From Planctomycetales bacterium 10988 (GTDB lineage: Bacteria > Planctomycetota > Planctomycetia > Pirellulales > Pb10988), in NCBI GenBank assembly GCA_009664345.1, contig CP043547.1, positions 3,066,709 through 3,130,708 of the forward strand: a stretch of 64,000 bases of DNA, in the 5' to 3' direction. Each line of letters begins with the position of its first letter. Positions within the stretch are counted from its first letter, which is position 1. This document shows positions 1-62,149 of this stretch, one piece after another. The notes under the pieces were generated by a model. The model worked only from the letters and a program-made list of their open reading frames with translations. It was not told the DNA's origin and ran no database searches. The position numbers were made by a program, and so were the translations under genes.

Positions 1-2909
1 GGACGCTTTTCTTTTCCGCCGATGATGGATGCGTGGGAAACGAGCTCTGGATGAGCAATGGAACCTCTGCGGGAACTGTGCTGGTGAAAGACATTCGTTC
101 TGGCCCAAACTCATCCCCAATCAGCGATACCATCAATTTGAATGGGACCCTCTTTTTTGCGGCAGGGGACGGGAGTACCGGAAGAGAACTTTGGCGAAGT
201 GATGGAACTTCCGCCGGCACGGTTCAGGTGAAGGACATCAATCCCAGCGGGACGTCTTCTCCTTACTATCTCATCAACGTCAATGGAGTGCTCTTTTTCA
301 CGGCGGATGATGGGAGCAATGGCCGGGAAGTTTGGAAGAGCGACGGAACCTCTGGCGGGACGCAACTAGTAAAAGACCTTTATTCTGGGGGAGATGGTTC
401 TGAGCCCAGGCACCTTACGAATGTCAACGGGACCGTCTTTTTCCGTGCCAACGATGGTAGTAGCGGCAGCGAGCTTTGGATGACCGATGGCACTTCCGCG
501 GGAACTGTGTTGGTGAAGGATCTTCTACCCGGCTCAGAGGGTTCTGCTCCCTCTCGTTTGGCGAATATGAATGGGACCCTCTTTTTTCGTGCCAACGACG
601 GAAGTACCGGAGCCGAGCCCAGGTTGAGTGATGGTTCTTCCGCGGGGACCGTTCAGGTTCAGAACATTCATCAGGGGACCATCTCCTCTTATCCCCGGGC
701 GCTCGGCAGCTTGAATGGCACGTTATTTCTGAATGCCAATGACGGTAGTAGCGGCAGCGAGCTTTGGATCACCGACGGCACTTCCGCCGGAACGATGTTG
801 CTGAAAGATATCAACCCCGGAGCGGATTCCTCGGACCCCTTTTCTCTTGTGAATTTAAATGGCACCCTTTTCTTTTCTGCCAATGATGGAAGTAGCGGAA
901 AAGAATTATGGATGAGTGATGGAACTTCCGCGGGAACGGTGTTGTTGAAAGACATCAACCCTGGAGCGGGTTCGTCTAGACCTTATGACTTAGTGAATGT
1001 GAACGGAACACTCTTCTTCGAGGCCGATGATGGAAGCAATGGTTTCGAGCTGTGGATGAGTGATGGGACTTCCGCCGGAACGGTTCTTGTGAAGGATATT
1101 CGTGCTGGTGCGAATTCCTCCTCTCCTAATTATTTCGTGAACGTGAGCGGTACCCTGTTCTTTACTGCCAATGATGGAAGCTCTGGTGGGGAAGTTTGGA
1201 TGAGTGATGGAACTTCTGCCGGAACCGTGCTGGTAAAAGACATTCACCCTGGTGCGGGTTATTCTTATCCAAGAGACCTAGTGAATGTCAACGGGACGCT
1301 CTTCTTTAGTGCCAATGACGCAAGTGATGGTTATGAACTTTGGATGAGCGATGGGACTTCCGCTGGAACCGTTCTCGTAAAAGACATTCAACCCGGAGCG
1401 TATTCGTCCCATCCAGAGTACCTCGTGAACGTGAACGGGACGCTTTTCTTCGAAGCCAATGATGGAAGTGATGGATATGAGTTATGGAAAAGTGATGGGA
1501 CTTCGGCCGGCACGATGCTGGTGACAGACCTTGTTTCCGGTTCAGATGGTTCCTATCCAACGACCTTAATCAATGTGAACGGGACGCTTTTCTTTGCCGC
1601 TTTCAATGAAGATACCGGCGGAGGGTTGTGGACGAGCGACGGAACCTCCGCGGGGACGATGCTCGTCGAACCTCTCCTTCTAAGCGGCGAGTCCAGTATT
1701 CTTCCTATGAATTTAGATGGCACGCTCTTTTTCAGTGCGAGCGATGCCCTCCTCGGTAGGGAACTTTGGGTACTGGATACGACCCTTACCCCGCTAACCG
1801 TCACGGGCAGTGATGCCGGGGCTGCCGGCACGGTGCGAGTCTTCGATGCGGCGGGTTCGGAAATTGATAGCTTTTTCCCGTATACCGAGGCCTTCACCGG
1901 AGGCATTCGCGTCGCCACCGGGGATATCAACGGCGATGGCGTGATGGACATCGTCACGGCTGCCGGACCAAGCGGTGGACCGAGGATCAGCGTTTATGAT
2001 AGTGAAACCGGCGAGTTGATCACGGGTGGGGTAAGTGACTTTTATGCTTACGATCCTTCAATCACTGTCGGTTTTTTCGTCGCCGTTGGAGATGTGAACC
2101 AAGACGGCTTTGATGACATTATCACCTCCGCCGATGCCGGAGGGGGTCCGCATATCAAAGTCTTCGATGGGAAGACCGGGGCCGTCATCATCGAGTTTTA
2201 TGCTTATGATCCCTCGATCACGGTCGGAGTCCGGATCGCCGCCGGGGATGTCGATGGGGATAACCGGGCCGATATCATTACCGCACCCGGTCCTGGCGGC
2301 GGGCCGCATATCCGCGTCTTTAATGGCATGACGGGAGCTCAAATCGAAGGGGCTGCCACGAATTTCTATGCTTATGATCCCGCGTTTACCGGCGGGGTTT
2401 ATGTCGCCAGTGGAGATGTCGATAACGATGGCTATGATGACATCATCACCGGGGCCGGGGCAGGCGGGGGTCCGCATGTGAAGGTCTTTAGCTCGCTCGA
2501 TGCTTCTCTGATCCAAAACTTCTTCGCTTATGATCCCTCCTTCACGGGTGGGGTTCGGGTGGCTGCGGAAGACCTCAATGGCGATTATATCGACGATATC
2601 CTTACCGCCCCCGGACCTCCAGGGGGGCCGCATGTCCGTGGCTTCAGCGGAGTAGATTTGGCGGAGTTGGCCAGCTTCTATAGTGGTTCCTCGACAAACT
2701 TCGACGGATTGTTCATCGCGGGAGGTTTGACGCCGCTGGACAATTTCCCTGCCGCTCCATTTTCCAGTCCCTTCTTGACGGAAACTGAGAACACTACTCC
2801 ACCTGAAGAGATAAACCTCGACAGCCCGACCGCAAAGAAATCTTGGGTTGAGGATACCGAGGAATTTTTTCAATCCGCCGAAGAAATCGATAAGCTCTTC
2901 AGCGGATAA
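1..2909 (+). CDS. Giant ELWxSDGT-repeat / FG-GAP surface protein, 5' end missing
   Basis: The reading frame is already open at base 3 and encodes the end of a repeat unit (GTLFFSADDG), so the gene enters from the left edge; the GTG at 33 is internal. About twelve ELWxSDGT(S)AGT units of about 48-50 residues follow, each with a GTLFF strand and VLVKDI segment, as in beta-propeller-like ELWxSDGT proteins. Next come five FG-GAP/VCBS-like units with calcium-loop signatures (GDINGDGVMD, GDVNQDGFDD and similar) and GGPH-[IV]-[KR]-VF strands. There is no Ig-like array between the two blocks, unlike the two paralogues in this window. The C-terminus carries KKSW, then EF, then EEIDKLFSG. The role is inferred to be a secreted or surface structural or adhesive protein; ligand and anchoring are unknown. 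A strong terminator follows. Confidence 0.9.
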   Translation, partial: TLFFSADDGCVGNELWMSNGTSAGTVLVKDIRSGPNSSPISDTINLNGTLFFAAGDGSTGRELWRSDGTSAGTVQVKDINPSGTSSPYYLINVNGVLFFTADDGSNGREVWKSDGTSGGTQLVKDLYSGGDGSEPRHLTNVNGTVFFRANDGSSGSELWMTDGTSAGTVLVKDLLPGSEGSAPSRLANMNGTLFFRANDGSTGAEPRLSDGSSAGTVQVQNIHQGTISSYPRALGSLNGTLFLNANDGSSGSELWITDGTSAGTMLLKDINPGADSSDPFSLVNLNGTLFFSANDGSSGKELWMSDGTSAGTVLLKDINPGAGSSRPYDLVNVNGTLFFEADDGSNGFELWMSDGTSAGTVLVKDIRAGANSSSPNYFVNVSGTLFFTANDGSSGGEVWMSDGTSAGTVLVKDIHPGAGYSYPRDLVNVNGTLFFSANDASDGYELWMSDGTSAGTVLVKDIQPGAYSSHPEYLVNVNGTLFFEANDGSDGYELWKSDGTSAGTMLVTDLVSGSDGSYPTTLINVNGTLFFAAFNEDTGGGLWTSDGTSAGTMLVEPLLLSGESSILPMNLDGTLFFSASDALLGRELWVLDTTLTPLTVTGSDAGAAGTVRVFDAAGSEIDSFFPYTEAFTGGIRVATGDINGDGVMDIVTAAGPSGGPRISVYDSETGELITGGVSDFYAYDPSITVGFFVAVGDVNQDGFDDIITSADAGGGPHIKVFDGKTGAVIIEFYAYDPSITVGVRIAAGDVDGDNRADIITAPGPGGGPHIRVFNGMTGAQIEGAATNFYAYDPAFTGGVYVASGDVDNDGYDDIITGAGAGGGPHVKVFSSLDASLIQNFFAYDPSFTGGVRVAAEDLNGDYIDDILTAPGPPGGPHVRGFSGVDLAELASFYSGSSTNFDGLFIAGGLTPLDNFPAAPFSSPFLTETENTTPPEEINLDSPTAKKSWVEDTEEFFQSAEEIDKLFSG

Positions 2910-2961
2910 GGTATTGCAGAGTGATCATCCAAGGTTGGCTTTGACAAAGTTTCAGTAACAC

Positions 2962-3003
2962 AAAAGGGCTTCGATGGAGAATGCTTCCACCGAAGCCCTT
3001 TTT
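2962..3003 (+). terminator. Rho-independent terminator after the first giant surface gene
   Basis: The arms AAAAGGGCTTCG (2962-2973) and CGAAGCCCTTTT match perfectly around a 17-nt loop, and a T run follows. It separates the two tandem giant genes into different transcripts. Confidence 0.85.
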
Positions 3004-3145
3004 GATTGCTATGAACCGTTCATGGCTTTTACAGGTTTTTTTGAGGAAGGGGTATTTTTATATAGACAGGGGGGGAATTTGCTTTATATTCAAACAGTAA
3101 GTTACTATTGTTTATCTAGATATCCTTTAGAGGGCAGCATCTCCC

Positions 3146-6100
3146 ATGGCTTGGCACACATTCCTCTCTTCCATTTCGCAACCACGACGGCAGGCTTCCC
3201 TTCAAGAGGCGAAAGAGACCCCTCTTCAATTGGAACAACTTGAATCACGTCAATTGCTGGCAGCGGAGCCGATCTCTTTCGATCTCAATCCGACCGGAGA
3301 CTCCGATCCTCGCAAAGCCACGGATGTCGGAGCAATCACCTTCTTTGTCGCGAATGATGGCAGCTCAGGTGCGGAGTTGTGGAAAACCGATGGAACTTCC
3401 GCCGGCACGGTTCTCGTAAAAGATATCAATCCTGGCTCAGACGGTTCTGCCCCTTATGGCCTGACGAATGTGAACGGCACGCTCTTCTTTCAAGCCTTTG
3501 AACCAAGCACCGGGACCGAGCTTTGGATAAGCGATGGGACTTCCGCCGGCACTGTCCTCGTCAAGGATACCAATCCTGGGACTCAGGGGACCTCCTTCCT
3601 TTATATGACGAATGTCGGGGGTCAACTTTTCTTTCGATCCAGCGGTGGGAGTAGCTACGGCAGTGAACTTTGGAAGAGCGATGGAACTTCCGGCGGTACT
3701 GTGATGATCAAGGATATTAATCCCGGCCCTTCAAGCTCCGGGATCGATCAGGAATTAGCCGCTAGTGGAGCAACCCTCTATTTCCAAGCAAACGACGGCT
3801 CAACCGGACCGGAACTCTGGCGGAGTGATGGAACTTCTGTGGGAACGGTTCGGATCTCGGACCTGATTTCTGGTTCTAATGGTAGTTATCCCCATGAAAT
3901 TACGAATGTGAATGGAACGATCTACTTTTCCGCGAACTCAGATTCGTTTGGCACCGAGCTTTGGCGAGTGGATTTTTCCGTTGGTGCAGTCCTGGTGAAG
4001 GATATCAACCCAGGAACGGATGCTTCTCGTCCCGATGACCTGACCAATGTCAACGGAACCCTCTACTTCTCAGCCAATGATGGAACCTACAAGGGATTAT
4101 GGAAAACGGATGGAACCTCGGAGGGGACAGAACTGTTGAAAGTTCCCTATCTCACCAAGAGCTATACTCCGTTCCGATACATGACCAATATCAATGGGAC
4201 GCTTTTTTTCTCCGCGAATGATGGTACTTCCGGGATGGAGCTTTGGAAAAGCGACGGGACTTCCAGCGGCACGGTCATGGTCAAGGATATCAATCCCGGC
4301 ACGTATGGGTCCTACCCCTACCCACAACTCCTCTTCGATGGAGAAATCTACTTCAGTGCCTATACAAACGCGAATGGAACAGAAATTTGGAAGACCGATG
4401 GCACTTCCGAGGGGACGATGCTGGTCGCGGATGTGCATCCAGGGGTCAAGTCCTCCAATCCCTATATGTTCAATGTGAATGGCAATCTAATCTTCATTGG
4501 AACAGATGCCACCTATGGCGACGAACTCTGGCGGCTTGCTCCTGACGAGACGGCCCCGACGCTTGAAATCACTCCCGATGGCACGACAACGAACAACAGC
4601 CCGATCACCTTCACTTTTCAGTTTTCCGAGGAAATCGTCAACTTTACCGTCGATGATATCAATGTGACCGGAGGAACGAAGGGCACCTTGATGATGGTCG
4701 ATGAGGATACATATACCCTCGAGGTAACGCCTTCGGCCGATGGGAGTGTAACCGTTTCCGTGGCTGATGATACGGCTGAAGATACCGCCGGGAATCTGCT
4801 TGAAAGTGATAGTGCCACGGTGACGTATGATTCGACGGCCCCGAGCTTAGAGATTACCCCCGATGGCACGACGACACCTACCAGCCCGATTACGTTTACC
4901 TTCCAGTTTTCCGAAGTCGTGACCGGATTCATCGAAGGAGACATCTCGATCACCAATGGATCGGGAAGCAACTTCATGGCCGTCGATGGCGATACTTATA
5001 CCTTGGATGTCACCCCAACCGCTGCCGGTACGGTAACCGTAATGGTAGCTAGCGAGGTTGCTCAAGATGCCGCTATGAACGACAATACCGGCGATAGTGC
5101 CTCGGTGACTTATAGTCCTTTTGAAGAGAAACCGCTCATCGTTACCGGCAGTGATACCGGCGGTGGCGTGGTCCGCGTCTTCAATAGTAGCGGGGTTGAG
5201 CAATTCAATTTCTTCCCGTTTACGGCAGCTTTTACGGGGGGAGTCCGGGTCGCCACCGGGGATATCAACAATGACGGTGTTCTGGATATCGTCACAGCTG
5301 CCGGTCCCGGAGGGGGTCCGCGAGTCAGCGTTTATGATAGTGAAACAGGTCAACTGATCACCGGGGGACTGAGTGATTTCTTTGCGTATGCCTCGAATAT
5401 CACGGTCGGAATTTTCGTGGCGGTCGGCGATGTCAACAATGATGGCTATGACGACATCATCACCGGGGTCGATGCCGGGGCTGCCCCGCATGTGAAGGTT
5501 TTCAACGGACAGACCGGGGCGGTGATCACCGAGTTCTATGCTTATAATCCAAGCATCACCGTCGGCGTTCGCGTGGCCGCAGGCGATGTTAATGGTGACG
5601 GCACTGCTGAAGTGATCACGGCCACCGGACCAGGAGGTGGACCCCATATTCGTGTCTTCAATGGAAGCAGTTCCACCGGGGTTCCGATTTCCGGGGCCGC
5701 GACGGATTTCTATGCGTATGCCCCGGATGTCACGACAGGCGTTTATATCGCTTCCGGCGATGTGGATAACGATGGCAAAGACGACATCATCACCGCACCG
5801 GGAGCTGGCGGCGGGCCGCATGTGAAGGTCTTCAGTTCCGACACCGGCGGCGTCCTTAAAGAGTTCTATGCTTATAATCCTTCGATTACCGTCGGCGTTC
5901 GCGTCGGAGCGGCGGACCTGAATGACGATGGCTTCGCGGATATCCTCACGACTCCCGGACCCGGCGGCGGACCGCACACGCGGGCCTTTAGTGGAACGGA
6001 CCTGGCGGACCTTTCCAACTTTTTCTCGGGATCGCCCACCAATACCGATGGCCTTTTCGTTGCCGGCGGCGTGAGTGTCGTGCCCTTGGGTCCGGCGTCC

Positions 6101-6286
6101 GCTCCGCTTTCCAGCTCTTTTGTAAGTACCGAAGAGAGCGATCCGCCGGAGGATATCACTTTAGAAACACTTACCAAGAAAAAATCCTGGTATGATGAAG
6201 TCGATGAATTTTATTCCAAAAGCGAAGAGGTTGACGATCTCTTCAGCGGATTGGTATTTGATTCAAATCCAAAAAGTGATTTTTAA
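3146..6286 (+). CDS. Giant ELWxSDGT / Ig-like / FG-GAP surface protein
   Basis: This is a complete 1046-aa paralogue of the preceding gene. The basic N-terminus (MAWHTFLSS) leads to LESRQLLAAEP at about residues 34-44, the planctomycete-type N-terminal signature of large exported proteins. Residues about 55-475 hold eight ELWxSDGT units plus a terminal half unit. Two bacterial Ig-like (Big_12-like) domains follow, starting PTLEITPDG and PSLEITPDG and spaced exactly 285 bp apart (4556 and 4841). Five FG-GAP-like calcium-binding units fill about 660-975. The tail has KKSW, EF and EEVDDLFSG, shared with the other two paralogues, plus about 11 extra residues. No good Shine-Dalgarno precedes the ATG; the start rests on alignment with MTWLPKF of the paralogue at 55709. 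Secretion and surface location are inferred. Confidence 0.9.
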   Translation: MAWHTFLSSISQPRRQASLQEAKETPLQLEQLESRQLLAAEPISFDLNPTGDSDPRKATDVGAITFFVANDGSSGAELWKTDGTSAGTVLVKDINPGSDGSAPYGLTNVNGTLFFQAFEPSTGTELWISDGTSAGTVLVKDTNPGTQGTSFLYMTNVGGQLFFRSSGGSSYGSELWKSDGTSGGTVMIKDINPGPSSSGIDQELAASGATLYFQANDGSTGPELWRSDGTSVGTVRISDLISGSNGSYPHEITNVNGTIYFSANSDSFGTELWRVDFSVGAVLVKDINPGTDASRPDDLTNVNGTLYFSANDGTYKGLWKTDGTSEGTELLKVPYLTKSYTPFRYMTNINGTLFFSANDGTSGMELWKSDGTSSGTVMVKDINPGTYGSYPYPQLLFDGEIYFSAYTNANGTEIWKTDGTSEGTMLVADVHPGVKSSNPYMFNVNGNLIFIGTDATYGDELWRLAPDETAPTLEITPDGTTTNNSPITFTFQFSEEIVNFTVDDINVTGGTKGTLMMVDEDTYTLEVTPSADGSVTVSVADDTAEDTAGNLLESDSATVTYDSTAPSLEITPDGTTTPTSPITFTFQFSEVVTGFIEGDISITNGSGSNFMAVDGDTYTLDVTPTAAGTVTVMVASEVAQDAAMNDNTGDSASVTYSPFEEKPLIVTGSDTGGGVVRVFNSSGVEQFNFFPFTAAFTGGVRVATGDINNDGVLDIVTAAGPGGGPRVSVYDSETGQLITGGLSDFFAYASNITVGIFVAVGDVNNDGYDDIITGVDAGAAPHVKVFNGQTGAVITEFYAYNPSITVGVRVAAGDVNGDGTAEVITATGPGGGPHIRVFNGSSSTGVPISGAATDFYAYAPDVTTGVYIASGDVDNDGKDDIITAPGAGGGPHVKVFSSDTGGVLKEFYAYNPSITVGVRVGAADLNDDGFADILTTPGPGGGPHTRAFSGTDLADLSNFFSGSPTNTDGLFVAGGVSVVPLGPASAPLSSSFVSTEESDPPEDITLETLTKKKSWYDEVDEFYSKSEEVDDLFSGLVFDSNPKSDF
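4556..5125 (+). repeat. Two in-frame Ig-like modules, 285-bp period
   Basis: Two units start at 4556 and 4841, each exactly 285 bp (95 codons). They encode P-[TS]-LEITPDGTTT ... TFTFQFSE ... DTYTL-[ED]-VTP ... VTV. The same unit length recurs nine times in the gene at 55709. Confidence 0.8.
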
Positions 6287-6322
6287 ATTACCTTACCAAG
6301 ACCGGGTAGGATGGAAATTCGT

Positions 6323-6371: not shown

Positions 6372-7547
6372 CTACTCGGTTAACTTGGTGATGAGAAAAT
6401 CTTCAAGGGATTGATAAGGATTGGCATCGGCAGGCAGGTCCGGGGCGGTCACGACACATTCCAGCCCATGGTCTTGCATCGCTTCTTGTAGTTTGAGGCC
6501 GAGCAAAACATGGTGGACCCAAATAGCCGAACTCGTGTCGAGCGTGACTTCGACGTTGGGACGACTGTATAACATATAGACGCTGGCTCGGTCATCTTTC
6601 GAAAGATGCGTGATCGGAGAAGCATCTTTCATCAAGGCTTTGATCTCCGGACGATCCACATCGGATTCATTTTCCAGATCATAGAAGGCCGGCAGTGCCG
6701 GGCCCATGGCGAGGTCTGGAAGCTCGAACCATTCGCGGAAGGTATGCAAATCGTAGGTCGATTGACCATTGGTTGAACCCGCCGCCAGGATTCTTGTGGA
6801 TTGCCGGGCGATCGGGTCGTCGCTATCGGGATCGGCAAGGTCCTCGTGAAACGCCAGCCAAAGACTAATCCCAGCCCCTGCCGAACCGCCATAACAGGCA
6901 ACCCGTTCTGGATCGAGATTCCATTCCTTGGCCCGATGACGAATCGTTTGCAAGCCTCGGGCGGCATCGTGCATCATCATGGGATAAGGGCCGGTATTCG
7001 AAAGACGGTAGTTCATCGCGGCGAAGGCAACACCGGCTTTGTGATAGGTTTCCACGATTCCAGGCGGAAACATGGCTTTATCCCCAGAACGGAAACCACC
7101 TCCATGGATAAAGATGACCAGCGGGGTAGGTTCCTTGGCATCGGGAACCGGCCACAGGTCGAAGCATTGCAGGCGGTGTTCCCCATAAGCAACATTAGGA
7201 AAAGGAGCAGCGGATCGACGGGGGCGATTTCGCATTGGCTGCTCTTCCGTACCGCGGCGAGCAGACTGGAATCGTCGGATTTCTTCAAGGCTAAACGTCC
7301 CGTCTTTGTTCGTGTCCATCTCGGGAAAACGGCGGAGAAACTCCCTGCGTCGAGCAGCTTGCTGTTCTCGGAAGTTTTTAACCTCTTCCTGAGACAAGAC
7401 GCCATCTTTGTTGGTATCGCTCTCTGGAAATTGTTTTAAAAGTCGTTCGAGAGGTGATAAAGTTTCCTGAGCCGGGCGGTTCGGTGTCTGAGAATAGCTT
7501 AACATCGGGGCGAAGAAACAAAGAAGAAAAGCGGTGCGAAATGTCAT
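6372..7547 (-). CDS. Exported alpha/beta-hydrolase (esterase) with two EF-hands
   Basis: The 391-aa protein has a signal peptide (MTFRTAFLLCFFAPMLSYSQ). Two EF-hand loops follow at residues 44-55 (DTNKDGVLSQEE) and 78-89 (DTNKDGTFSLEE), then an esterase domain. HGGGF at 148-152 forms the expected oxyanion hole and GGSAG at 220-224 holds the nucleophile Ser222. A late VHH segment may hold the catalytic His. This is the pattern of the hormone-sensitive-lipase / BD-FAE group, which hydrolyses small or carbohydrate-linked esters. The substrate cannot be read from sequence; periplasmic location follows from the signal peptide. The EF-hands suggest calcium binding. It is a single gene, convergent with the giant gene upstream. 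Confidence 0.85.
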   Translation of the reverse strand: MTFRTAFLLCFFAPMLSYSQTPNRPAQETLSPLERLLKQFPESDTNKDGVLSQEEVKNFREQQAARRREFLRRFPEMDTNKDGTFSLEEIRRFQSARRGTEEQPMRNRPRRSAAPFPNVAYGEHRLQCFDLWPVPDAKEPTPLVIFIHGGGFRSGDKAMFPPGIVETYHKAGVAFAAMNYRLSNTGPYPMMMHDAARGLQTIRHRAKEWNLDPERVACYGGSAGAGISLWLAFHEDLADPDSDDPIARQSTRILAAGSTNGQSTYDLHTFREWFELPDLAMGPALPAFYDLENESDVDRPEIKALMKDASPITHLSKDDRASVYMLYSRPNVEVTLDTSSAIWVHHVLLGLKLQEAMQDHGLECVVTAPDLPADANPYQSLEDFLITKLTE

Positions 7548-7658
7548 GCTTGCTCTCTAGAAAGGGTTTAAGATGGGTTCAACTGATCCACTGATACTCC
7601 TTTCTAACCCCGATTCTGCCAAATTGTTTCGCCATCGATCTCTTTGAGGGAGAGTCTG

Positions 7659-8234
7659 ATGAATGAGCCGCTTGAAATCGTGGCATACAAACCTACTTGG
7701 CCTGCGCGTTACGAAGTGATTGCCGAGAGGCTAGCGGAGGCTTTGCAAGGGCTGGAAATTCGCATCGATCACATCGGCTCGACTTCGGTGCCAGAGTTGG
7801 CTTCTAAGGACAGGATCGATGTGCAAATCACCATCCCAACGGGAGAGGAAGCCTACATTTCCGAACTGAACCGAAAGCTGGCCAAGGCCGGTTTGGGAGA
7901 AGCGGCCCCCTTTGAAGATCATCGACCTCCTGGAGACACATCCCCGGCGATCGAGTGGCAAAAGTGGTACTTGCGTGGCAACCATTTCCCCTATCCCTGT
8001 AACATTCATATTCGCGTTCAAGGAAGAAAGAACCAAGTCTATCCGCTGCTGTTCCGGGATTTCCTGCGAGCCAATCAGCCTTCAGCCTTGGCTTATGGGG
8101 AGTTCAAGCAACGCCTCGCTCGGCTACTCCCTGAGGATCGCCATACCTATTGTGATGTGAAAGACCCGGTGTGCGATTTGATTCTAGAACATGCCCAGAA
8201 GTGGGCGGCGGAGACCGACTGGAAGTGCGAGTAA
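7659..8234 (+). CDS. GrpB / UPF0157 family protein
   Basis: This is a GrpB-family protein of about 191 aa. IVAYKPTWPARYE near the N-terminus, IDHIGSTSVPEL and a later KWYLRGNHFPYPCNIHIRV stretch are hallmarks of the family, which belongs to the nucleotidyltransferase fold. A TTG 15 bases upstream is possible, but the ATG at 7659 has a GAGGGAG ribosome site at the right distance. The cellular role is poorly known; some relatives are fused to dephospho-CoA kinase. It stands alone, divergent from the esterase. Confidence 0.85.
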   Translation: MNEPLEIVAYKPTWPARYEVIAERLAEALQGLEIRIDHIGSTSVPELASKDRIDVQITIPTGEEAYISELNRKLAKAGLGEAAPFEDHRPPGDTSPAIEWQKWYLRGNHFPYPCNIHIRVQGRKNQVYPLLFRDFLRANQPSALAYGEFKQRLARLLPEDRHTYCDVKDPVCDLILEHAQKWAAETDWKCE

Positions 8235-8463
8235 AAACGCTCGAATTTCGATTCCTCGAATGCTCGCTTCTTGTCTTGTCTGACATGGCAAGCTAAGGTG
8301 GAATGAGCCATGCGAATGGAGTCTCGGACTAGAGAACCTTCGACTATTGTAGAGGAATCATTCCTCACCATCTCCCTGGTCAGAGTTCTTTCTTTTTTCG
8401 AAAAGCTGGCGGCTACCATCTCTCTTTCTTCTCAATCTTTGAGGAACTGCCAGGAGGTTTGTG

Positions 8464-10080
8464 ATGCGGTTTTTGTTGGACGAGCGGTTCGTTCGAGAAT
8501 TGCAAGTTCGAGATTCTCACCTTCCAGACTGCTATGTCCGGCCTGGCGAATATTTGCATCATCTCTATTTAGGCGGCGTGAAATTCGTCGTCGTTCAGGC
8601 CCTCTTGGAATGCCTCAAGGAAGCGGAAGAACGGGGCGATCGCGAGGCCCTCGATCATTTGCTGTTGCATAAAAGGCAACTCGATTTCCTCATGGCCGAA
8701 GCCCAGCAAGAGGGTACTTTGGAAGGGAAGCCTCTCTTGGGCGATCCTCCTCCACCGAAAGACCAAACGAGTTCCCTGCCGGTCAATCATTATATGCCCC
8801 CCAAGCCGGAAACCATCGAGGATACCGGGCTAACCCGGACTCAATTGATGGAGATGATTCTCCGGTCGATCTACAATCATGGCCGCCTGACGGGGATTCG
8901 AATTGCCTATCATTTGCGAATTCCTTACGGCGTGATCGACCCGCTCTTGTTGGAGATGCGGGATTCGGAACTCTTGGCCGTGACGGCCCAGCGGGGCACC
9001 GGGGATTTTAGTTTCGAATATGAATTGCGACCCCCTCGCGGTCGGCAAGGGGCCGAGGATGCCCTAGAGAAAACCCAATATGACGGCCCTGCTCCGGTTC
9101 CGTTGGATGCCTATATCGATGGCATTATGAATCAAACGGTGCGTGATCTAACCGTGACCCGGCGTAACATTCGCGAGGCGTTTTATGATTTGATTTTGAA
9201 AGAGGAGATTCTCAATCAAGTCGGCCCGGCCATCAACGGGGCCTCTTCGATCTTCCTCTTCGGCTATCCTGGCAACGGAAAAACGAGTATCGCCGAACGC
9301 ATCTGCCGCGTGATGGGAAATGAGATGTACATCCCCTACGCGATCGATGTCGATGGCCAGATCATCAAGCTTTACGATCGGGTCGTGCATGAATCGATGG
9401 AGGATAATCGCACTCCAACCTATGATCCACGTTGGGTGAAGATTCGCCGCCCTGTCGTGATCGTCGGGGGGGAACTCACCCTGCCGATGCTCGATTTGGC
9501 CTATAACGAAATCGGGAAGTTCTATGAAGCCCCGTTGCAGTTGAAAGCCAATGGCGGCATCTTCCTGATCGACGACTTTGGCCGTCAACAAGTTCGCCCG
9601 ATGGACTTGCTCAACCGCTGGATTATCCCGTTGGAAAAACGGTACGACTACCTCACGACGGTCACCGGGATCAAGATTCAAATTCCTTTCGAACAGATTC
9701 TGATCTTCTCTACGAACCTTGATCCGCAACAACTCGCCGACGAAGCCTTCTTGCGACGGATTAAATATAAGATCGAAATCACCGATCCCGATGAGCAACA
9801 ATGGTGCGAAATCTGGCAAGCGGTCTGCAATGGCCGCGAAGTCCCGCTCGACCCGGCCGGGTTGGAATACATGCTCGCCAAGTGGTTCCGCCCGATCAAC
9901 CGCAACCTTCGCATGTGTCAACCGCGTGACTTGCTCGACAAGATGATCAGTATCAGCCGGTATAATATGGAGCGACCCAGCTTCAGCCCCGACCTAATCG
10001 ACGCTGCTTGCCAAGCCTATTTCATCGAAAACGACACCGAAGGCGAAAAATACGCCGCTTCCCATCAGTTGGAAATGTAA
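8464..10080 (+). CDS. AAA-type ATPase with N-terminal helical domain
   Basis: The protein is 538 aa. Residues 1-110 are charged and helical, ending in a PPPPK linker. Residues 120-190 resemble a small winged-helix-like segment. The P-loop is GYPGNGKT (267-274) and Walker B is IFLIDDFG (about 366-373). Downstream, FSTNLDPQQLADEAFLRRI gives a sensor-like Asn and an arginine pair typical of AAA+ proteins. AGGAGG at 8452-8457 lies 6 nt from the ATG and 3 nt from an in-frame GTG, so ATG is preferred. The family is a general ATPase and the target is unknown. It is followed by its own terminator, so it is not cotranscribed with recA. Confidence 0.8.
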   Translation: MRFLLDERFVRELQVRDSHLPDCYVRPGEYLHHLYLGGVKFVVVQALLECLKEAEERGDREALDHLLLHKRQLDFLMAEAQQEGTLEGKPLLGDPPPPKDQTSSLPVNHYMPPKPETIEDTGLTRTQLMEMILRSIYNHGRLTGIRIAYHLRIPYGVIDPLLLEMRDSELLAVTAQRGTGDFSFEYELRPPRGRQGAEDALEKTQYDGPAPVPLDAYIDGIMNQTVRDLTVTRRNIREAFYDLILKEEILNQVGPAINGASSIFLFGYPGNGKTSIAERICRVMGNEMYIPYAIDVDGQIIKLYDRVVHESMEDNRTPTYDPRWVKIRRPVVIVGGELTLPMLDLAYNEIGKFYEAPLQLKANGGIFLIDDFGRQQVRPMDLLNRWIIPLEKRYDYLTTVTGIKIQIPFEQILIFSTNLDPQQLADEAFLRRIKYKIEITDPDEQQWCEIWQAVCNGREVPLDPAGLEYMLAKWFRPINRNLRMCQPRDLLDKMISISRYNMERPSFSPDLIDAACQAYFIENDTEGEKYAASHQLEM

Positions 10081-10105
10081 CCGCTTTCGATCTTTCTCAG
10101 AAAAC

Positions 10106-10156
10106 AAAATCCTCTGCCTCCCTGATCGCATCAGATTTTGGGAACAGAGGATTTTT
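10106..10156 (+). terminator. Rho-independent terminator after the AAA ATPase gene
   Basis: AAAATCCTCTG (10106-10116) pairs with CAGAGGATTTT starting at 10145 and is followed by T's. The intervening loop is about 28 nt. Confidence 0.8.
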
Positions 10157-10258
10157 CTTGCGCGGATTCGCTTAGAATGTCTCTCCTTCTTGTCAAAGAA
10201 ACACCCTAAAAGCTTGAAAAATTCCCTCAGAAATTCGAATTTTAGCTCTTGATCGATA

Positions 10259-10278
10259 TAGTATAATTATGTATACTA
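10259..10278 (+). promoter_or_regulatory. Palindrome overlapping a TATAAT box upstream of recA (candidate operator)
   Basis: TAGTATA (10259-10265) and TATACTA (10272-10278) form a perfect 7-bp inverted repeat with a 6-nt spacer, and a TATAAT hexamer sits at 10262-10267. The site is about 80 bp upstream of the recA start. Its overlap with a -10-like box is what a repressor operator would look like. An SOS/LexA role is inference; no consensus for this lineage is claimed. Confidence 0.4.
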
Positions 10279-10358
10279 ACCAAGAAGGAAAGTCAAGATC
10301 CTACTCGTTGCATCTAGCATCTTGAAATCATCCAGTTAAAAAAGAGGGTAAGAACGAT

Positions 10359-11489
10359 ATGGTTACCGCTACCACCAACAACACGAAATCCATGGCCAAA
10401 AAATCAACCAAGCGATCCAGCTCCACCAAATCAACCCCCTCGGATGGCATCTTCGATCGCGATCCGAATTTGAAAAGTGCTCTCTCCCAGATTCATAAGC
10501 AATTCGGGGAAGGTTCCATCATGGCCTTGGGAGGCTCCAATATTGCCCCCATTGATGGGGTTTCCACCGGAAGCCTCGCTTTGGACTTGGCCCTCGGCGG
10601 CCGCGGAGTTCCCAAAGGACGGATTATTGAAATCTTCGGCCCAGAGTCGAGCGGGAAAACGACCCTCTCGCTGCATGTGCTGGCGCATGCTCAAAAAGGT
10701 GGAGGAATCGCCGCCTTTGTCGATGCCGAACATGCTCTTGATCCGAGTTGGGCCAAGAAGCTCGGCGTGGAACTCGAAAACCTCCTGGTCAGCCAACCGA
10801 CCAGTGGCGAAGAAGCGATGCAAATCACCGAGATGTTGATTCGCTCCAACGCGGTCGATGTCATCGTGGTCGACTCGGTCGCCGCCCTTGTTCCCAAGAA
10901 AGAGTTGGAAGGGGAGATCGGGGATTCCCACGTTGGGTTGCAAGCCCGCTTGATGAGTCAATCGTTGCGAAAACTCAATGGTGCGATCTCCAAAAGCAAA
11001 ACTTGCGTCATCTTCATCAACCAAATCCGGGAAAAGATCGGCGTGATGTTCGGCTCTCCGGAAACGACTCCTGGTGGTCGTGCCCTAAAGTTCTACTGTT
11101 CTTGCCGGATCGATGTCCGCCGTGTCGGCTCGATCAAGGATGGCGAAGAATATGTCGGCCAGCGGGTTCGTGCCAAGGTCGTGAAAAACAAAGTCGCCCC
11201 GCCGTTCCAGGTCGCGGAATTCGATATGATGCACGATAATGGCATCAGTGCCGAAGGGGACCTGCTTGATCTGGCCCTTGATATGAAACTGATTGCCCGT
11301 AGCGGAACGTGGTTCCGTTATGGGGATACGCAACTGGGGCAAGGTCGCGAACGAGCCAAGACCTTCCTCAAGGAAAACCCGGATATTTTTGAAGAGCTGA
11401 AGCAAAAGGTCCTCGCCGAGAAGGGGATTCTCAAACCTCACTACGGCGACCCGGATGCAGATCCCTCTTCGGATGAATCAGAAGACTAA
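10359..11489 (+). CDS. recA: Recombinase RecA
   Basis: RecA is the ATP-dependent strand-exchange protein of homologous recombination and the activator of LexA-type self-cleavage. The 376-aa product has Walker A GPESSGKT at 94-101, Walker B VIVVD at 168-172, and the DNA-binding and core segments [17 protein letters not shown] and [14 protein letters not shown]. The N-terminus has about 30 extra Lys/Ser/Thr-rich residues before the conserved [15 protein letters not shown], longer than in E. coli (353 aa in total). The C-terminus is acidic, as usual. The start has an AGAGGGTA purine stretch upstream. A palindrome over a TATAAT box lies about 80 bp upstream. Confidence 0.98.
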
Positions 11490-11497
11490 TTGAAGAA

Positions 11498-11583
11498 GCT
11501 CTGACAAAACTAATTTCAAAGTATCTTTAGCATGCAAACGTAATCGCATTTGCACTGATACAAGAGGTTTTGTCTGAGCCACT
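11498..11583. repeat. 86-bp palindromic intergenic element (REP/MITE-like), copy 1
   Basis: The ends are GCTCTGACAAAAC (11498-11510) and GTTTTGTCTGAGC (11567-11579), an inverted repeat with one unpaired position, followed by CACT. A second inverted repeat TGCAAA / TTTGCA is centred near 11543. Length and ends match the copy at 22245. Confidence 0.75.
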
Positions 11584-11623
11584 AAAGAAAGTGACCAAGA
11601 CGGCTCACTTTTAGGAGAGCAAG

Positions 11624-55174: not shown

Positions 55175-55708
55175 TCGTGCCGACACTCCTATTTTTCAAG
55201 TTCGGTATACAGGTAATTTTCCTATAGAGGTATACGGTAAACACTTCTATTTACTTGTAATAAAAAAGAAAGATGGTATTTGCAATTTTTCTGACACTTC
55301 AATCTGCACTTCGGTGACGCTAGCATTTCGGTGAATTCATGGATATTAGGAAAATAATTATCGAGTATTTTTCACTGGATTGAATAATTAACCAATTTTT
55401 CCTAAGCCATTACGCCTAAACGACTATTAAAATCAATCCTTGTTATCTAATAAACAAATTGTACAGAAAGCAGATAAATTTTAGAAAAAGCTTGTGACAT
55501 TTGAAAGACGAAGGAGGTAGTATAGGCTATTGGATTCAATCCGTAGTCCAGCGTTCTAAGTTAGCGAAAGAATCTCACCTTATCTGACAGGTAAGCAAAC
55601 CCCACCAAATATCCCAGTTAAAATCCTTCCTACTTTCCTCCCGGCACCAGAAAAGGTGTTTGTCGTGGAAGGTACGCGCTTAACTATAACCCCCAGTGAG
55701 AAATGCGA
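55175..55708. other. Gene-free, AT-rich interval upstream of the largest gene
   Basis: The promoter of the giant gene should be here. No consensus elements stand out. The region has low GC compared with the genes either side. Confidence 0.4.
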
Positions 55709-58700
55709 ATGACTTGGCTCCCCAAATTTTCAAAAAAGGCAGAACAACGCCAACAAGCCCGAATTCAGTCGGAACGAGATACGGTCCTACAAGTAGAACA
55801 GCTTGAAACGCGAACTCTTTTGGCTGCGGAACCGCTTTTGATTGATATCAATACGGGGGGAGGGGCCTATCCTCGCGAAATCACCGAAGTCAATGGCAAT
55901 CTGTTCTTTGTGGCTAACGACGGAACCAGTGGAAATGAGCTCTGGAAGTCCGATGGGACGTCCGGCGGAACCGTGTTGGTCAAAAATATCTATGGCGGAA
56001 ATAGTGATCCAGAGTTCTTCCGCTCCTTGACCAATATGGATGGGACGTTGTTTTTTCTGGCCCGACAAGGTGCCAGTGGATATGAACTGTGGAAAAGTGA
56101 CGGAACGACCGGCGGCACGGTCATTGTGAAAGATATCAACGGCTCGGGGACTGGATCGCACCAGTTTCTCAATTCCGACAGTTATCGAGATTTGAGCTAC
56201 GACAGCCTCTTCCCCGTGAATGGAACGCTTTTTTTCCGAGCAGGAGATGGAAGTGGCCAAGAGCTATGGAAGAGTGATGGAACTGAAGGCGGAACCGTTT
56301 TGGTGAAGAACCTCGCACCCGGTGGGGCTAGTTCCGATCCACAAATGATGACGAATGTAGATGGGACGCTGTTCTTTACCGCCAATGATGGAAGTGGGAT
56401 CGGCCTTTGGAAAACCGACGGAACCGCTGGGGGGACGGTGCTTCTGAAAAACCTTTCTTCGAGCGATTACGATCACAATTTCGATTCAGAAAACGTCAAC
56501 GGAACGTTGTTCTTTTCCACCCAAGCGCGAGAATTGTGGGCCAGTGACGGGACTTACGCAGGCACACAGATCATCAAGCTCTTCAGCCAATCGAATTACA
56601 GCCCGACGAACTTAACGAATATCGAAGGGACTCTATTCTTCAGCGGTCACACGACGACCCAAGGTTTCGAACTCTGGAAGAGCGACGGGACTTCCATGGG
56701 GACCGAGCTAGTGAAGGACATTCGCACCGAATACGGCATCGGCTCGATCCCTTCGAACTTGACCAATTATGATGGAACCCTCTTCTTCCAAGCCAATGAT
56801 GGAACGCTGGGTTACGAACTCTGGACGAGTGATGGAACCTCCGCGGGGACGCAAATCGTCCAGGATATTGCTCCGAACTCTTCCAGCCCTCAATTCCTGA
56901 CCGTCTTCGATAACACCCTCTTCTTCCAAGCCAATGGCCTTAGCGGTGGCGTTCAATTGTGGACTTACGACGGAACGTCCGCCGGGGTGATGCCGTTCTT
57001 TGATTCCAACGCAGAAGTAGTCCAAAACCCCCGTTATCTGACCAATGCCAACGGCACGCTCTTCTTCACTTCCGGTGCTCCGATCGGGGGCCTTGGACAA
57101 GAGCTCTGGATCAGTGACGGGACATGTGCAGGAACGATGCTGGTCAAGAACCTCTTCGAAGGGGGCCTCGATTCGGTTCCGGAATTCTTTACCGATGTGA
57201 ATGGGACCCTCTTCTTCCGAGCGACCGGGGAAACCGCTGGCTTCGAGCTTTGGCGAAGTGATGGCACCATCGATGGTACCAACCTCGTGAAAGACATCAT
57301 TCCCGGACTCCGTGGATCGAACCCTATCGATTTGGTCAATGTAAATGGCACCCTCTTCTTCAGTGCCGAAAGCCCCTCTCTAGGCCGTGAACTTTGGAAG
57401 AGCGACGGAACGCCCGGTGGAACGCAGGTGGTCAAGGACCTCGTGAAAGATGAAGGAAGCTCCAATCCTTACCAACTCGCCAACATCAACGGCACGCTGT
57501 TCTTTGTGGCCGATGACGGAAGCTATGGCTTTGAATTATGGAAGAGCGACGGAACCAGCAACGGCACGCAAATGGTGAAAAATATTCACAGTGCGGAATA
57601 TCTGCCGGGATTCGATCAGTTCACGAACGTCAACGGCACGCTCTACTTTGTGAAAGACTCCGGGAATTTCACCCAACAGCTGTGGCGAACCACCGGGACG
57701 GGAGGCGGCACGGTCATGCTTCGCGAAAGCATCATGAACGGGGAAGAGCAAAAATTCCGCTTCTTGAACAACCTCAATGGACAATTGGTATTCGTCGCGA
57801 ACGATGGTTTTTCCGGCTATGAACTCTGGAAAAGCAATGGAACTTCGCAAGGGACGGTCTTGGTGAAAGATGTCCACGCCGGCAGCCCTGGTGCCTTCCA
57901 AGATACCTATTACATCTCGGATGCGACCTCTTTGAAGAACCTCAACGGGACGCTGTTCTTCCGAGCCAACGATGGCGTCAATGGCTACGAGCTGTGGAAA
58001 ACGGATGGAAGTTATGACGGCACGAGCCGCGTCACGCAGCTCAAACCGGGTGGAGCCGGAAGTCTCCTCAATGACTTTGCCGAGGTCGATGGCAGTCTCT
58101 TCTTCCGCACCAACGACGTGACGGAATCTTCTCTCTGGAAGACGGATGGAACCTCGGAAGGCACGGTGTTGATCAAGAGCTTGAATCGATCCCCGGCACC
58201 GTATCAAGTCGATCGGGTCGAGGCGATTCAAGGGACGCTCTACTTCGTGGCTTGGAATGCCTCGATGGGTCGCGAACTGTGGCGAAGTGACGGAACGAGT
58301 GAAGGAACGGTTCTCGTCAAGGAATTGCTCGACGATCCGAACGAACATCCGAACTTGCTGAACCAAGTGGATGGGACACTGTTCTATCGAGCGGATGATG
58401 GCTTCCACGGCATCGAACTCTGGTCCTTGGATGCGACCGTGCCGACCTTGGAAATTACCCCCGATGGTGGCATGACGACCTCCAGCCCGATTCTGTTTAC
58501 GTTCCAATTCTCCGAGGAAATCTTCGACTTTACCGTAAGTGATGTCATGATCACCAACGGAACGGCAGGGACCTTTACCGCCGTTGATGGGGATACCTAT
58601 ACCTTACAAGTAACTCCGACCGCCGATGGCGATGTCACCGTGAGCGTTGCCGAAGGAGGTGCTGTTGATGCTGACCTGCACGACAGCAAGGCCGATTCCG

Positions 58701-61700: not shown

Positions 61701-62149
61701 TCAAAGTCTTTAGTTCACTTGATGCCAGCTTGCTACAAAACTTCTATGCCTATAATCCAGCCTTCACAGGTGGGGTTCGGGTAGGAGCCGCTGATCTCAA
61801 TAACGATGGCTACACGGATATCATCACTACACCGGGAGCCGGTGGCGGTCCCCATGTCCGGGCCTTTAGCGGAATGAATCTTGCTGATATCTCCAGCTTC
61901 TATTCCGGACCCACGAAGTATACACAAGGACTGTTCGTCGGCGGGGGAGTTACGATACTTCCGAAGACGATCGTCAATCCGCTTTCCAGTTCCTTCGTCG
62001 TTGATAGCTCAGCTTCGGAGACAACCCCGCAAGAAGAACTTCCTTTGGAAAAAATCCAAAAGAAAAAATCCTGGTGGGACGAAGTGGATGAGTTCTATGC
62101 TCAATCCGAAGAGATCGACAAACTCTTCAGTGGCCTTGGGATTGAATAG
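55709..62149 (+). CDS. Giant ELWxSDGT / nine-Ig-like / FG-GAP surface protein
   Basis: The protein is 2146 aa. MTWLPKF leads through a Lys/Gln/Arg-rich segment to LETRTLLAAEP, the export signature. Seventeen ELWxSDGT units and a terminal half unit occupy residues about 45-905. Nine Big_12-like Ig domains follow, each exactly 95 residues, then five FG-GAP-like calcium-binding units. The tail has KKSW, EF and EEIDKLFSG. Compared with the two paralogues at the left of the window it has more repeats of both kinds. An ATG two codons earlier (55703) is possible; 55709 aligns with MAWHTF of the paralogue. No ribosome site is seen. A surface or secreted structural or adhesion role is inferred. Confidence 0.92.
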   Translation: MTWLPKFSKKAEQRQQARIQSERDTVLQVEQLETRTLLAAEPLLIDINTGGGAYPREITEVNGNLFFVANDGTSGNELWKSDGTSGGTVLVKNIYGGNSDPEFFRSLTNMDGTLFFLARQGASGYELWKSDGTTGGTVIVKDINGSGTGSHQFLNSDSYRDLSYDSLFPVNGTLFFRAGDGSGQELWKSDGTEGGTVLVKNLAPGGASSDPQMMTNVDGTLFFTANDGSGIGLWKTDGTAGGTVLLKNLSSSDYDHNFDSENVNGTLFFSTQARELWASDGTYAGTQIIKLFSQSNYSPTNLTNIEGTLFFSGHTTTQGFELWKSDGTSMGTELVKDIRTEYGIGSIPSNLTNYDGTLFFQANDGTLGYELWTSDGTSAGTQIVQDIAPNSSSPQFLTVFDNTLFFQANGLSGGVQLWTYDGTSAGVMPFFDSNAEVVQNPRYLTNANGTLFFTSGAPIGGLGQELWISDGTCAGTMLVKNLFEGGLDSVPEFFTDVNGTLFFRATGETAGFELWRSDGTIDGTNLVKDIIPGLRGSNPIDLVNVNGTLFFSAESPSLGRELWKSDGTPGGTQVVKDLVKDEGSSNPYQLANINGTLFFVADDGSYGFELWKSDGTSNGTQMVKNIHSAEYLPGFDQFTNVNGTLYFVKDSGNFTQQLWRTTGTGGGTVMLRESIMNGEEQKFRFLNNLNGQLVFVANDGFSGYELWKSNGTSQGTVLVKDVHAGSPGAFQDTYYISDATSLKNLNGTLFFRANDGVNGYELWKTDGSYDGTSRVTQLKPGGAGSLLNDFAEVDGSLFFRTNDVTESSLWKTDGTSEGTVLIKSLNRSPAPYQVDRVEAIQGTLYFVAWNASMGRELWRSDGTSEGTVLVKELLDDPNEHPNLLNQVDGTLFYRADDGFHGIELWSLDATVPTLEITPDGGMTTSSPILFTFQFSEEIFDFTVSDVMITNGTAGTFTAVDGDTYTLQVTPTADGDVTVSVAEGGAVDADLHDSKADSATILYDVETPSLEITPDGTYEDASPILFTFEFSENVSGFVKGDISVSNGTAGTFTAIDGNTYTLEVAPTSEGDVVISVADGVAQDSAGKTNLGDMATVVYDITPPSLQITPDGTYEDASPILFTFEFTEDVNGFVKGDISVTNGTAGTFTAVDGNTYTLEVAPTAEGEVIVTVVSGVAQDDSGKDNIGDITSVIYDITPPSLEITPDGTFTENSLITFTFEFSEDVNGFDTGDIVVTNGTKGTFTAVDGNTYTLEVTADAEGEVIATVADAVAQDDSGKDNVGDSATVVYDITPPSLQITPDGTYEDASPILFTFEFTEDVNDFDASDIVVTNGTKGTFTAVDGNTYTLEVAPTAEGEVTVTVADAVAQDDSGKDNLGDMASVIYDITPPSLEITPDGTFTENPLITFTFEFSEDVNGFDTGDIVVTNGTKGTFTAVDGNTYTLEVTADAEGEVIATVADAVAQDDSGKDNVGDSATVVYDITPPSLQITPDGTYEDASPILFTFEFTEDVNGFVKGDISVTNGTAGTYTAVDGNTYTLAVTPTAEGEVTVTVADAVAQDDSGKDNLGDMASVIYDITPPSLAITPDGTLTNSEPILFTFEFTEDVNGFVKGDIMVTNGTAGTFTVIDGDSYTLVVTPTADGDVVVTVADGVAQDDSGKDNLGDMATVTYDSTPPTVEITPDQLVTGTNPIIFTFEFSEEIVGFTLGDISVTNGTVGEFVMVDEDTYTLEVFPVEDGEVTVSVADATATDLATNPLIGSSATIESDRFQEKPLIVTGADAGIPATVRVFAPNGSEQFTFAPYGAQFIGGVRVAMGDINGDGIMDIVTAPGAGHSPEIRVYDTETGLLLSGGIGSFQAYASNVKVGLFIAVGDVNDDGFDDIITSVDAGGGPHVKVFSGDGSGLISEFYAYAPNVTVGVRVASGDIDGNGTAEVITAPGAGGGPHIRVFDGTTGMQMPGAATNFYAYAPNVTTGIYVAAGDVNNDGLDDIITAPGAGGGPHVKVFSSLDASLLQNFYAYNPAFTGGVRVGAADLNNDGYTDIITTPGAGGGPHVRAFSGMNLADISSFYSGPTKYTQGLFVGGGVTILPKTIVNPLSSSFVVDSSASETTPQEELPLEKIQKKKSWWDEVDEFYAQSEEIDKLFSGLGIE
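58442..61006 (+). repeat. Nine tandem 285-bp Ig-like repeats with a duplicated two-unit block
   Basis: Units start at 58442, 58727, 59012, 59297, 59582, 59867, 60152, 60437 and 60722, always 285 bp apart. Units 4 and 6 (59297, 59867) differ at only five bases by my alignment and are identical over their second half. The 3' halves of units 5 and 7 are also nearly identical, which indicates a recent 570-bp duplication. The front of unit 7 resembles unit 3 instead, suggesting gene conversion. Confidence 0.95.

What the first reader, a model, noticed from the sequence alone, without database searches (positions are those of the whole stretch)
1..6286. Shared C-terminal KKSW...LFSG motif in three giant surface proteins: candidate sorting signal
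All three giant ELWxSDGT/FG-GAP proteins (ending at 2909, 6286 and 62149) end with KKSW, five residues, EF, four residues, then EE-[IV]-D-x-LFSG, although the stretch just before it varies. The motif is near the end but not always terminal; one protein adds about 11 residues. Conservation at a C-terminus beyond the folded repeats is what a secretion or anchoring signal would show, paired here with the N-terminal LE-x-R-x-LLAAEP signature. The secretion role is inference.
Basis: partly seen in the sequence, partly recalled or inferred. Interest (0 to 1): 0.65.

Follow-up and report, generated by a model that had tools for sequence, protein, structure and literature searches.

The report
Lineage-specific C-terminal helix on surface proteins
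One planctomycete genome puts the same short charged helix at the very end of more than fifty large, probably surface-exposed proteins; selection clearly maintains it, but it occurs on one protein family in one lineage, and its likely role as a targeting or docking tag is not shown.

Summary
All three window proteins end in KKSW-x5-EF-x4-EE[IV]DxLFSG; they belong to a set of 56 in this 6.65-Mb genome. The full motif runs to the stop...KKSWxDEVDEFYQSAEEIDKLFSGLGI[E]-COOH; 50 of 55 keep the LFxGLG[IVM] end. The two odd window ends look like single-mutation derivatives. The tail is as conserved as the preceding beta-propeller (68% identity each) across a variable linker (29%), with near-saturated synonymous sites and pN/pS 0.27 against 0.70 for the linker. 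AlphaFold gives propeller, disordered linker, separate helix. No convincing match in Pfam, NCBIfam or PDB, and no other genome searched has it.

In relatives the propeller often simply ends; 3 of 100 carry a PEP-CTERM-like end there, only one over its family cut-off. Best reading: a surface-targeting or docking tag acting after LExR-type export. No partner is known.

The parts
1791..2726 (+). FG-GAP beta-propeller at the C-terminal side of protein 1 (ORF 3-2909, start outside the window); limits approximate
   Evidence: Pfam PF01839/PF13517; A3 profile match G000:C1:3068463-3069623; limits
2727..2834 (+). variable linker of protein 1
   Evidence: 29% mean identity among paralogues' linkers
2835..2909 (+). 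C-terminal tail of protein 1, KKSW...LFSG then TAA; last residues GLGI lost to a stop codon
3224..3271 (+). N-terminal signature of protein 2 (PF07595 Planc_extracel, LESRQLLAAEP)
   Evidence: 28.3 bits, over cut-off in the frame search; 22.8 bits, under cut-off
5132..6071 (+). FG-GAP beta-propeller of protein 2 (ORF 3146-6286); limits approximate
6072..6178 (+). variable linker of protein 2
6179..6286 (+). C-terminal tail of protein 2, KKSW...LFSGL then 10 residues out of the canonical frame, and stop
55787..55834 (+). N-terminal signature of protein 3 (PF07595-like, LETRTLLAAEP; under the cut-off)
   Evidence: 22.8 bits; 16.2 bits
61013..61945 (+). FG-GAP beta-propeller of protein 3 (ORF 55703-62149)
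   Evidence: AlphaFold2 residues 23-333 of the last 400, pLDDT mostly 91-98
61946..62062 (+). disordered, variable linker of protein 3
   Evidence: pLDDT about 42-46 in its core
62063..62149 (+). canonical C-terminal tail of protein 3, KKSWWDEVDEFYAQSEEIDKLFSGLGIE and stop; helix predicted at residues 376-395 of the model

Best explanation
The tail is a short linear targeting tag at the extreme C-terminus: an acidic amphipathic helix (W...F[YF]...I..LF) ending in a near-invariant GLGI, held by a flexible linker to a C-terminal integrin-type beta-propeller. Shown: it exists on 56 ORFs, is terminal wherever intact, is under purifying selection, and was found in this genome only. Predicted: it folds as a helix separate from the propeller. 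Inferred: the proteins are exported through their N-terminal LExRxLLA signature, which other large proteins of the genome share without the tail; the tail then docks on a dedicated receptor or assembly factor that delivers or retains this one class of propeller proteins at the cell surface. That is the kind of job a PEP-CTERM signal is thought to do on some related propeller proteins. The receptor, and whether the tail is cleaved, are unknown.
For: Terminal in 55 of 56, the other a pseudogene. pS/pN 0.75/0.20 in the tail against 0.755/0.53 in the linker, 54 sequences. Separate helix after a disordered linker in AlphaFold2; amphipathic, mean z 2.72 against shuffles, n = 55; net charge -1 to -7 in the last 26 residues of 55. 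Propellers inside four giant proteins have no tail. LExR N-terminus in 50 of 56, with no strongly hydrophobic N-terminal stretch in 48 of 50. LExR motif is reported as a planctomycete export signal (PMC8567305 section 19, citing Studholme et al. 2004, not seen). 31 of 100 relatives' propeller ORFs end at the last strand, 3 carry a PEP-CTERM-like end, none has the tail.
Against: Found on one paralogue family and in one genome only, so portability to unrelated proteins is not shown. Tail and propeller distances correlate (r = 0.37), as expected if they simply descend together. The PEP-CTERM comparison is thin: of the three, only the Sphingomonas protein passes a cut-off; G025 falls just short (14.2 of 16 bits) and G007 has no library match. 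Two of the three window copies have lost the GLGI end, as have or altered it five of 55 overall, so the last residues may be dispensable. No receptor or neighbouring export gene was found; genes beside the window copies are ordinary enzymes and RecA. Surface location itself is inferred.
Confidence: 0.45

Rival explanations
1. Self-assembly helix: the tail of one molecule packs on a neighbouring molecule (its ELWxxDGT, Ig-like or propeller domain, or another tail), building a surface layer or fibre out of these paralogues.
For: More than fifty paralogues in one genome, many in tandem clusters; amphipathic helix on a flexible tether; confined to one family.
Against: No multimer model was run. 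The tail is kept on proteins with and without ELW repeats (8 of 56 have none by pattern), so a partner site would have to lie in the propeller or tail.
Confidence: 0.2
2. Export signal proper: an uncleaved C-terminal secretion signal, as in type I secretion, recognised by an ABC transporter.
For: Terminal amphipathic acidic helix, very few cysteines (0.09% of residues), Ca-binding-type repeats, no hydrophobic signal peptide in 48 of 50. The likeness to type I signals is recalled, not tested.
Against: No type I HlyD above its cut-off (best 44.8 against 208.65 bits; that model also rings weakly in 13 of 14 control genomes). Eighteen other LExR proteins of the genome have other ends.
Confidence: 0.18
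3. Intramolecular latch or stabiliser: the helix packs on the protein's own domains or protects the C-terminus from proteases.
For: Always joined to the propeller; correlates with propeller divergence.
Against: Predicted detached, with a linker of low confidence (but only three of 25 rows hold a tail and upstream domains were not in the model). Relatives' propellers do without it.
Confidence: 0.12
4. No function: a leftover shared by recent duplicates.
For: Large paralogue family with duplicated segments of equal score.
Against: Synonymous sites of the tail are near saturation (pS 0.75) while pN is 0.20, and the adjoining linker has pN 0.53.
Confidence: 0.03

Closest known systems
PEP-CTERM/exosortase sorting signal (PMC1569441, abstract and passages seen)
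   Same: Short homology domain at the extreme C-terminus, many copies in one genome, on large exported proteins; PEP-CTERM-like ends follow the same propeller in three relatives. The genome has an exosortase.
   Different: No PEP motif, no hydrophobic helix (highest 12-residue Kyte-Doolittle mean 1.21), no basic cluster at the end; no NCBIfam model matched any of 33 tails.
Planctomycete N-terminal export signature, Pfam PF07595 Planc_extracel
   Same: Present on 50 of 56 tail ORFs as a LExR pattern; 76 matches in the genome at E <= 10, many on other giant proteins.
   Different: It is at the other end of the protein and occurs on proteins without the tail.
FG-GAP integrin-type beta-propeller (PF01839/PF13517) and ELWxxDGT repeat (TIGR04534)
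   Same: These are the domains that carry the tail.
   Different: None of 100 relatives' propeller ORFs examined has the tail.
Type I secretion C-terminal signals (recalled)
   Same: Terminal, amphipathic, no N-terminal hydrophobic peptide.
   Different: No type I HlyD over cut-off in the genome; no matching model among the libraries.

Membership tests
PEP-CTERM sorting signal | PEP motif followed by a hydrophobic helix and a basic cluster | tested here: not met
   Alignment A2 has no PEP motif; no hydrophobic stretch; no NCBIfam match for 33 of 33 tails
PEP-CTERM sorting signal | Exosortase in the same genome | tested here: met
   PF09721, 206.2 bits, cut-off 25.7
Type I secretion substrate | Type I HlyD-family adaptor in the genome | tested here: not met
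   TIGR01843 best 44.8 bits against 208.65; the ABC protein and outer-membrane channel were not searched
Type I secretion substrate | Uncleaved C-terminal signal needed for export | not testable with these tools
   Needs an experiment
Sortase (LPXTG) or type IX C-terminal domains | Match to a curated C-terminal sorting model | tested here: not met
   No NCBIfam family up to E 1 in any of 33 tails; the whole window proteins match none of these either
PF07595 Planc_extracel N-terminus | LExRxLLA motif near the N-terminus | tested here: met
   50 of 56 by pattern; of 76 Pfam matches in the genome the table marks 16 as over cut-off; window proteins under cut-off
FG-GAP propeller / ELWxxDGT proteins | Domain matches over curated cut-offs | tested here: met
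   55 of 56 ORFs, the other a pseudogene
   All 56 follow the same propeller; no other genome searched has it

The most novel reading that the evidence does not exclude
A new class of C-terminal surface-sorting tag without a transmembrane segment: one planctomycete lineage evolved an acidic amphipathic helix ending in GLGI, used where relatives have PEP-CTERM-like ends or nothing on the same propeller scaffold, with a dedicated, still unidentified receptor that serves more than fifty clients of one genome.
Probability: 0.25. Interest if true: 0.7.

Novelty: new variant of a known kind. Interest (0 to 1): 0.43.

Why it matters
How planctomycetes place their very large surface proteins is poorly understood: there is an N-terminal signature, but most of these proteins show no hydrophobic signal peptide. 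A terminal tag on more than fifty proteins of one genome, clearly kept by selection, would be a direct handle for pulling down the partner machinery. If it proves to be a self-assembly helix instead, it would point to how these proteins build a surface coat.

Tried and rejected
Chance or a low-complexity artefact: rejected (56 matches at E <= 1.3e-6). Leftover of recent duplication: rejected by near-saturated synonymous sites. General export signal of all LExR proteins: rejected. I fetched the ends for 20 of the 76 PF07595 matches, picked because no tail match shares their frame; 18 were readable and none had the tail. The other tail-less matches, mostly short frames, were not fetched. Type I secretion: not supported by the HlyD search. 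A PEP-CTERM variant: features not met. A tail-like end in a relative (L268, genome G027) was followed up: it occurs once in that genome and in none of four others searched, the own genome among them. The match in G271 (class search, E = 0.002, model positions 3-20 only) is read as chance. Plasmids and viral contigs gave nothing. Pfam gave four families for single tails only, the best LIN9_C at E = 0.0018 in 1 of 33, and PDB gave four chains at E 0.23-0.85; all are read as chance.

My first account of PEP-CTERM in relatives was too strong: it rested on a pattern. A later scan showed only the Sphingomonas protein (L204) over its cut-off, L240 just under (14.2 of 16 bits) and L241 without a match.

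Rows dropped: the alignments used 54 of 56 (pseudogene 6259824 and the 271-aa ORF 5945860 left out). A2 used 33 and A3 used 20 of 56. One search left out ORFs that run off the 3' edge of a locus, and L266 (the same gene as L241). Limits: the 84,980-species scan used one peptide pattern, [IV]D[KDE]LF[ST]GLG, and may leave out the own genome and near ones, so diverged tails could be missed. The order and class searches were samples of 196 and 297 genomes.
Full report
What is there. The window is part of a single-contig 6.65-Mb genome (G000:C1:3066709-3130708). Three ORFs, ending at 2909, 6286 and 62149, consist of ELWxxDGT repeats (TIGR04534), in the second and third Big_12 Ig-like domains, and a C-terminal FG-GAP propeller. 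A profile of the three peptides finds 57 matches in the genome, 56 at E <= 1.3e-6; a broader profile finds the same 56, a 13-residue remnant downstream of one of them (E = 0.003), and chance-level matches. Extracting the ORFs puts the motif at the ORF end in 55 of 56; the other, 6259824, has a stop inside the motif.

Anatomy. Consensus: KKSWxDEVDEFYQSAEEIDKLFSGLGI plus usually one residue. In a 33-row alignment F25, G27, L28 and G29 are invariant and W7, F14, E19, D22, L24 and I30 nearly so. Fifty of 55 keep [LV]FxGLG[IVM] at the end. In the window, protein 1 stops at LFSG because TAA stands where the Leu codon should be, with GIAE following. Protein 2 reads LVFDSNPKSDF where a one-base shift would give LGI-stop. 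Protein 3 is canonical. They also show that the last residues can be lost in genes that otherwise look intact, which tells against their being essential.

Constraint. Across 54 sequences the propeller and the tail have 68% mean identity and the linker 29%. Median pS/pN is 0.68/0.22 for the propeller, 0.755/0.53 for the linker and 0.75/0.20 for the tail. Pairs identical in the last 19 residues still differ at 61% of synonymous sites (median of 26 pairs). The tail is kept by selection on the protein. Tail and propeller distances correlate moderately (r = 0.37).

Structure. AlphaFold2 on the last 400 residues of protein 3, with the two other window rows and 22 relatives' propellers, gives a propeller (pLDDT mostly 91-98), an unstructured linker (about 42-46) and a separate helix at 376-395 (block means 64-78). 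Only three rows hold a tail, and upstream domains were not included. Foldseek places the propeller with other beta-propellers, integrin-alpha and PVL-type lectins among them. The helix is amphipathic (mean z 2.72 against shuffles, n = 55) and acidic. The tail has no strongly hydrophobic stretch, nor has the N-terminus in 48 of 50.

Distribution in this genome. All 56 tails follow the propeller: 53 complete cassettes and 3 partial ones. Four propeller matches (one complete, three partial) lie directly or about 300 residues after the LExR signature of frames of 3,540 to 7,658 aa and have no tail; the ends of those four frames have none either. Two weaker matches in 443-aa and 400-aa frames were not examined. 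N-terminal parts vary: 8 of 56 have no ELW pattern, three of these with a LExR start.

Distribution elsewhere. The family has no other genome held. The order sample gave 1 of 196, the own genome. The class sample gave 2 of 297, the own genome and a short weak match read as chance. The scan of 84,980 species' genomes confirmed none of 48 pattern matches. Plasmids and viral contigs gave none. The propeller itself is widespread: 135 relatives, and 26 of 117 order genomes, the own one included.

What sits in that place elsewhere. Of 100 propeller ORFs of relatives with a stop inside the locus, 31 end exactly at the last propeller strand (G..[VL]G-COOH), 3 carry a PEP-CTERM-like end by pattern, and none has the tail (best tail-profile E 0.18); the rest are mixed. 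Of the three, the Sphingomonas protein L204 is over the cut-off (NF035944 43.5 bits, TIGR02595 21.1 of 16), L240 is under it (14.2 of 16) and L241 has no match although its end reads IPEPS, a hydrophobic stretch and a basic cluster. The propeller thus looks like a scaffold with different C-terminal ends. This is a suggestive, not a strong, argument that the tail does the work of a sorting or anchoring end.

Machinery. The genome has an exosortase, but the tail lacks PEP-CTERM features. No type I HlyD reaches its cut-off. Of the 18 other LExR proteins with readable ends none has the tail; a Pfam scan of ten of those ends gave DUF4214 domains in three, pretoxin HINT in two (one with a YwqJ-like deaminase match), weak sub-cut-off matches in one and nothing in four. 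LExR proteins therefore do not need the tail. The LExR motif is described as a planctomycete export signal, citing Studholme et al. 2004, in PMC8567305 (section 19 read); the 2004 paper was not seen.

Literature. ELWxxDGT alone gave 0 papers. KKSW or LFSGLG anywhere gave 29 papers, of which the 10 listed are unrelated by title. Combinations on planctomycetes with giant proteins, C-terminal sorting, signal peptides and PEP-CTERM listed nothing that, by title and start of abstract, describes this tail; of the 48 papers only 12 were listed. Seen: passages of PMC1569441, PMC3192720 and PMC8567305 (plus its section 19); abstract, passages and one stretch of the results of PMC12288469. Preprints and most subscription journals are not in that library.

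Judgement. A narrower reading, a surface-targeting or docking tag for one expanded family, fits best but is inferred.

Noticed in passing
G000:C1:402973-408679, 5085384-5087662 and 5571074-5574452: Pairs of matches with equal scores suggest recently duplicated segments that carry tail genes, one copy inverted; the ORF ending at 407.6 kb lacks a LExR start in its own frame.
   Followed up: no
window 2905-2925 and 6245-6290: Two of the three window tail genes have lost the canonical GLGI end, one by a stop codon and one by a probable one-base shift.
   Followed up: yes
L111 and L112 (G000:C1 about 628 kb and 703 kb): Ends of LExR frames of 7,658 and 5,941 aa carry pretoxin HINT domains, one with a YwqJ-like deaminase match: likely polymorphic-toxin proteins with a planctomycete LExR start and an N-terminal propeller.
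   Followed up: partly
L163, L170, L176, L182, L244, L250 and others: In 31 of 100 relatives' ORFs the protein ends exactly at the last propeller strand as G..[VL]G-COOH, often GGVFVG; this terminal strand is itself strikingly conserved.
   Followed up: partly
L268 (genome G027): A relative's propeller protein ends ...YEIDVDEFFQGFGQDA, faintly like the tail; found once in that genome and in none of four others, and the tail profile gives it only E 0.86.
   Followed up: yes
L108, L117, L122: Other LExR proteins of the genome end in DUF4214 domains, one after a choice-of-anchor I domain.
   Followed up: no
G000:C1:863145-863183 (-): A 13-residue remnant of the tail end lies about 80 bases downstream of an intact tail (E = 0.003), perhaps the trace of a recombination.
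   Followed up: no
window 6372-13147: Genes next to the first two tail genes are an alpha/beta hydrolase with EF-hand matches, an ORF without a Pfam match, RecA and a trypsin-PDZ protease; no obvious export gene.
   Followed up: partly
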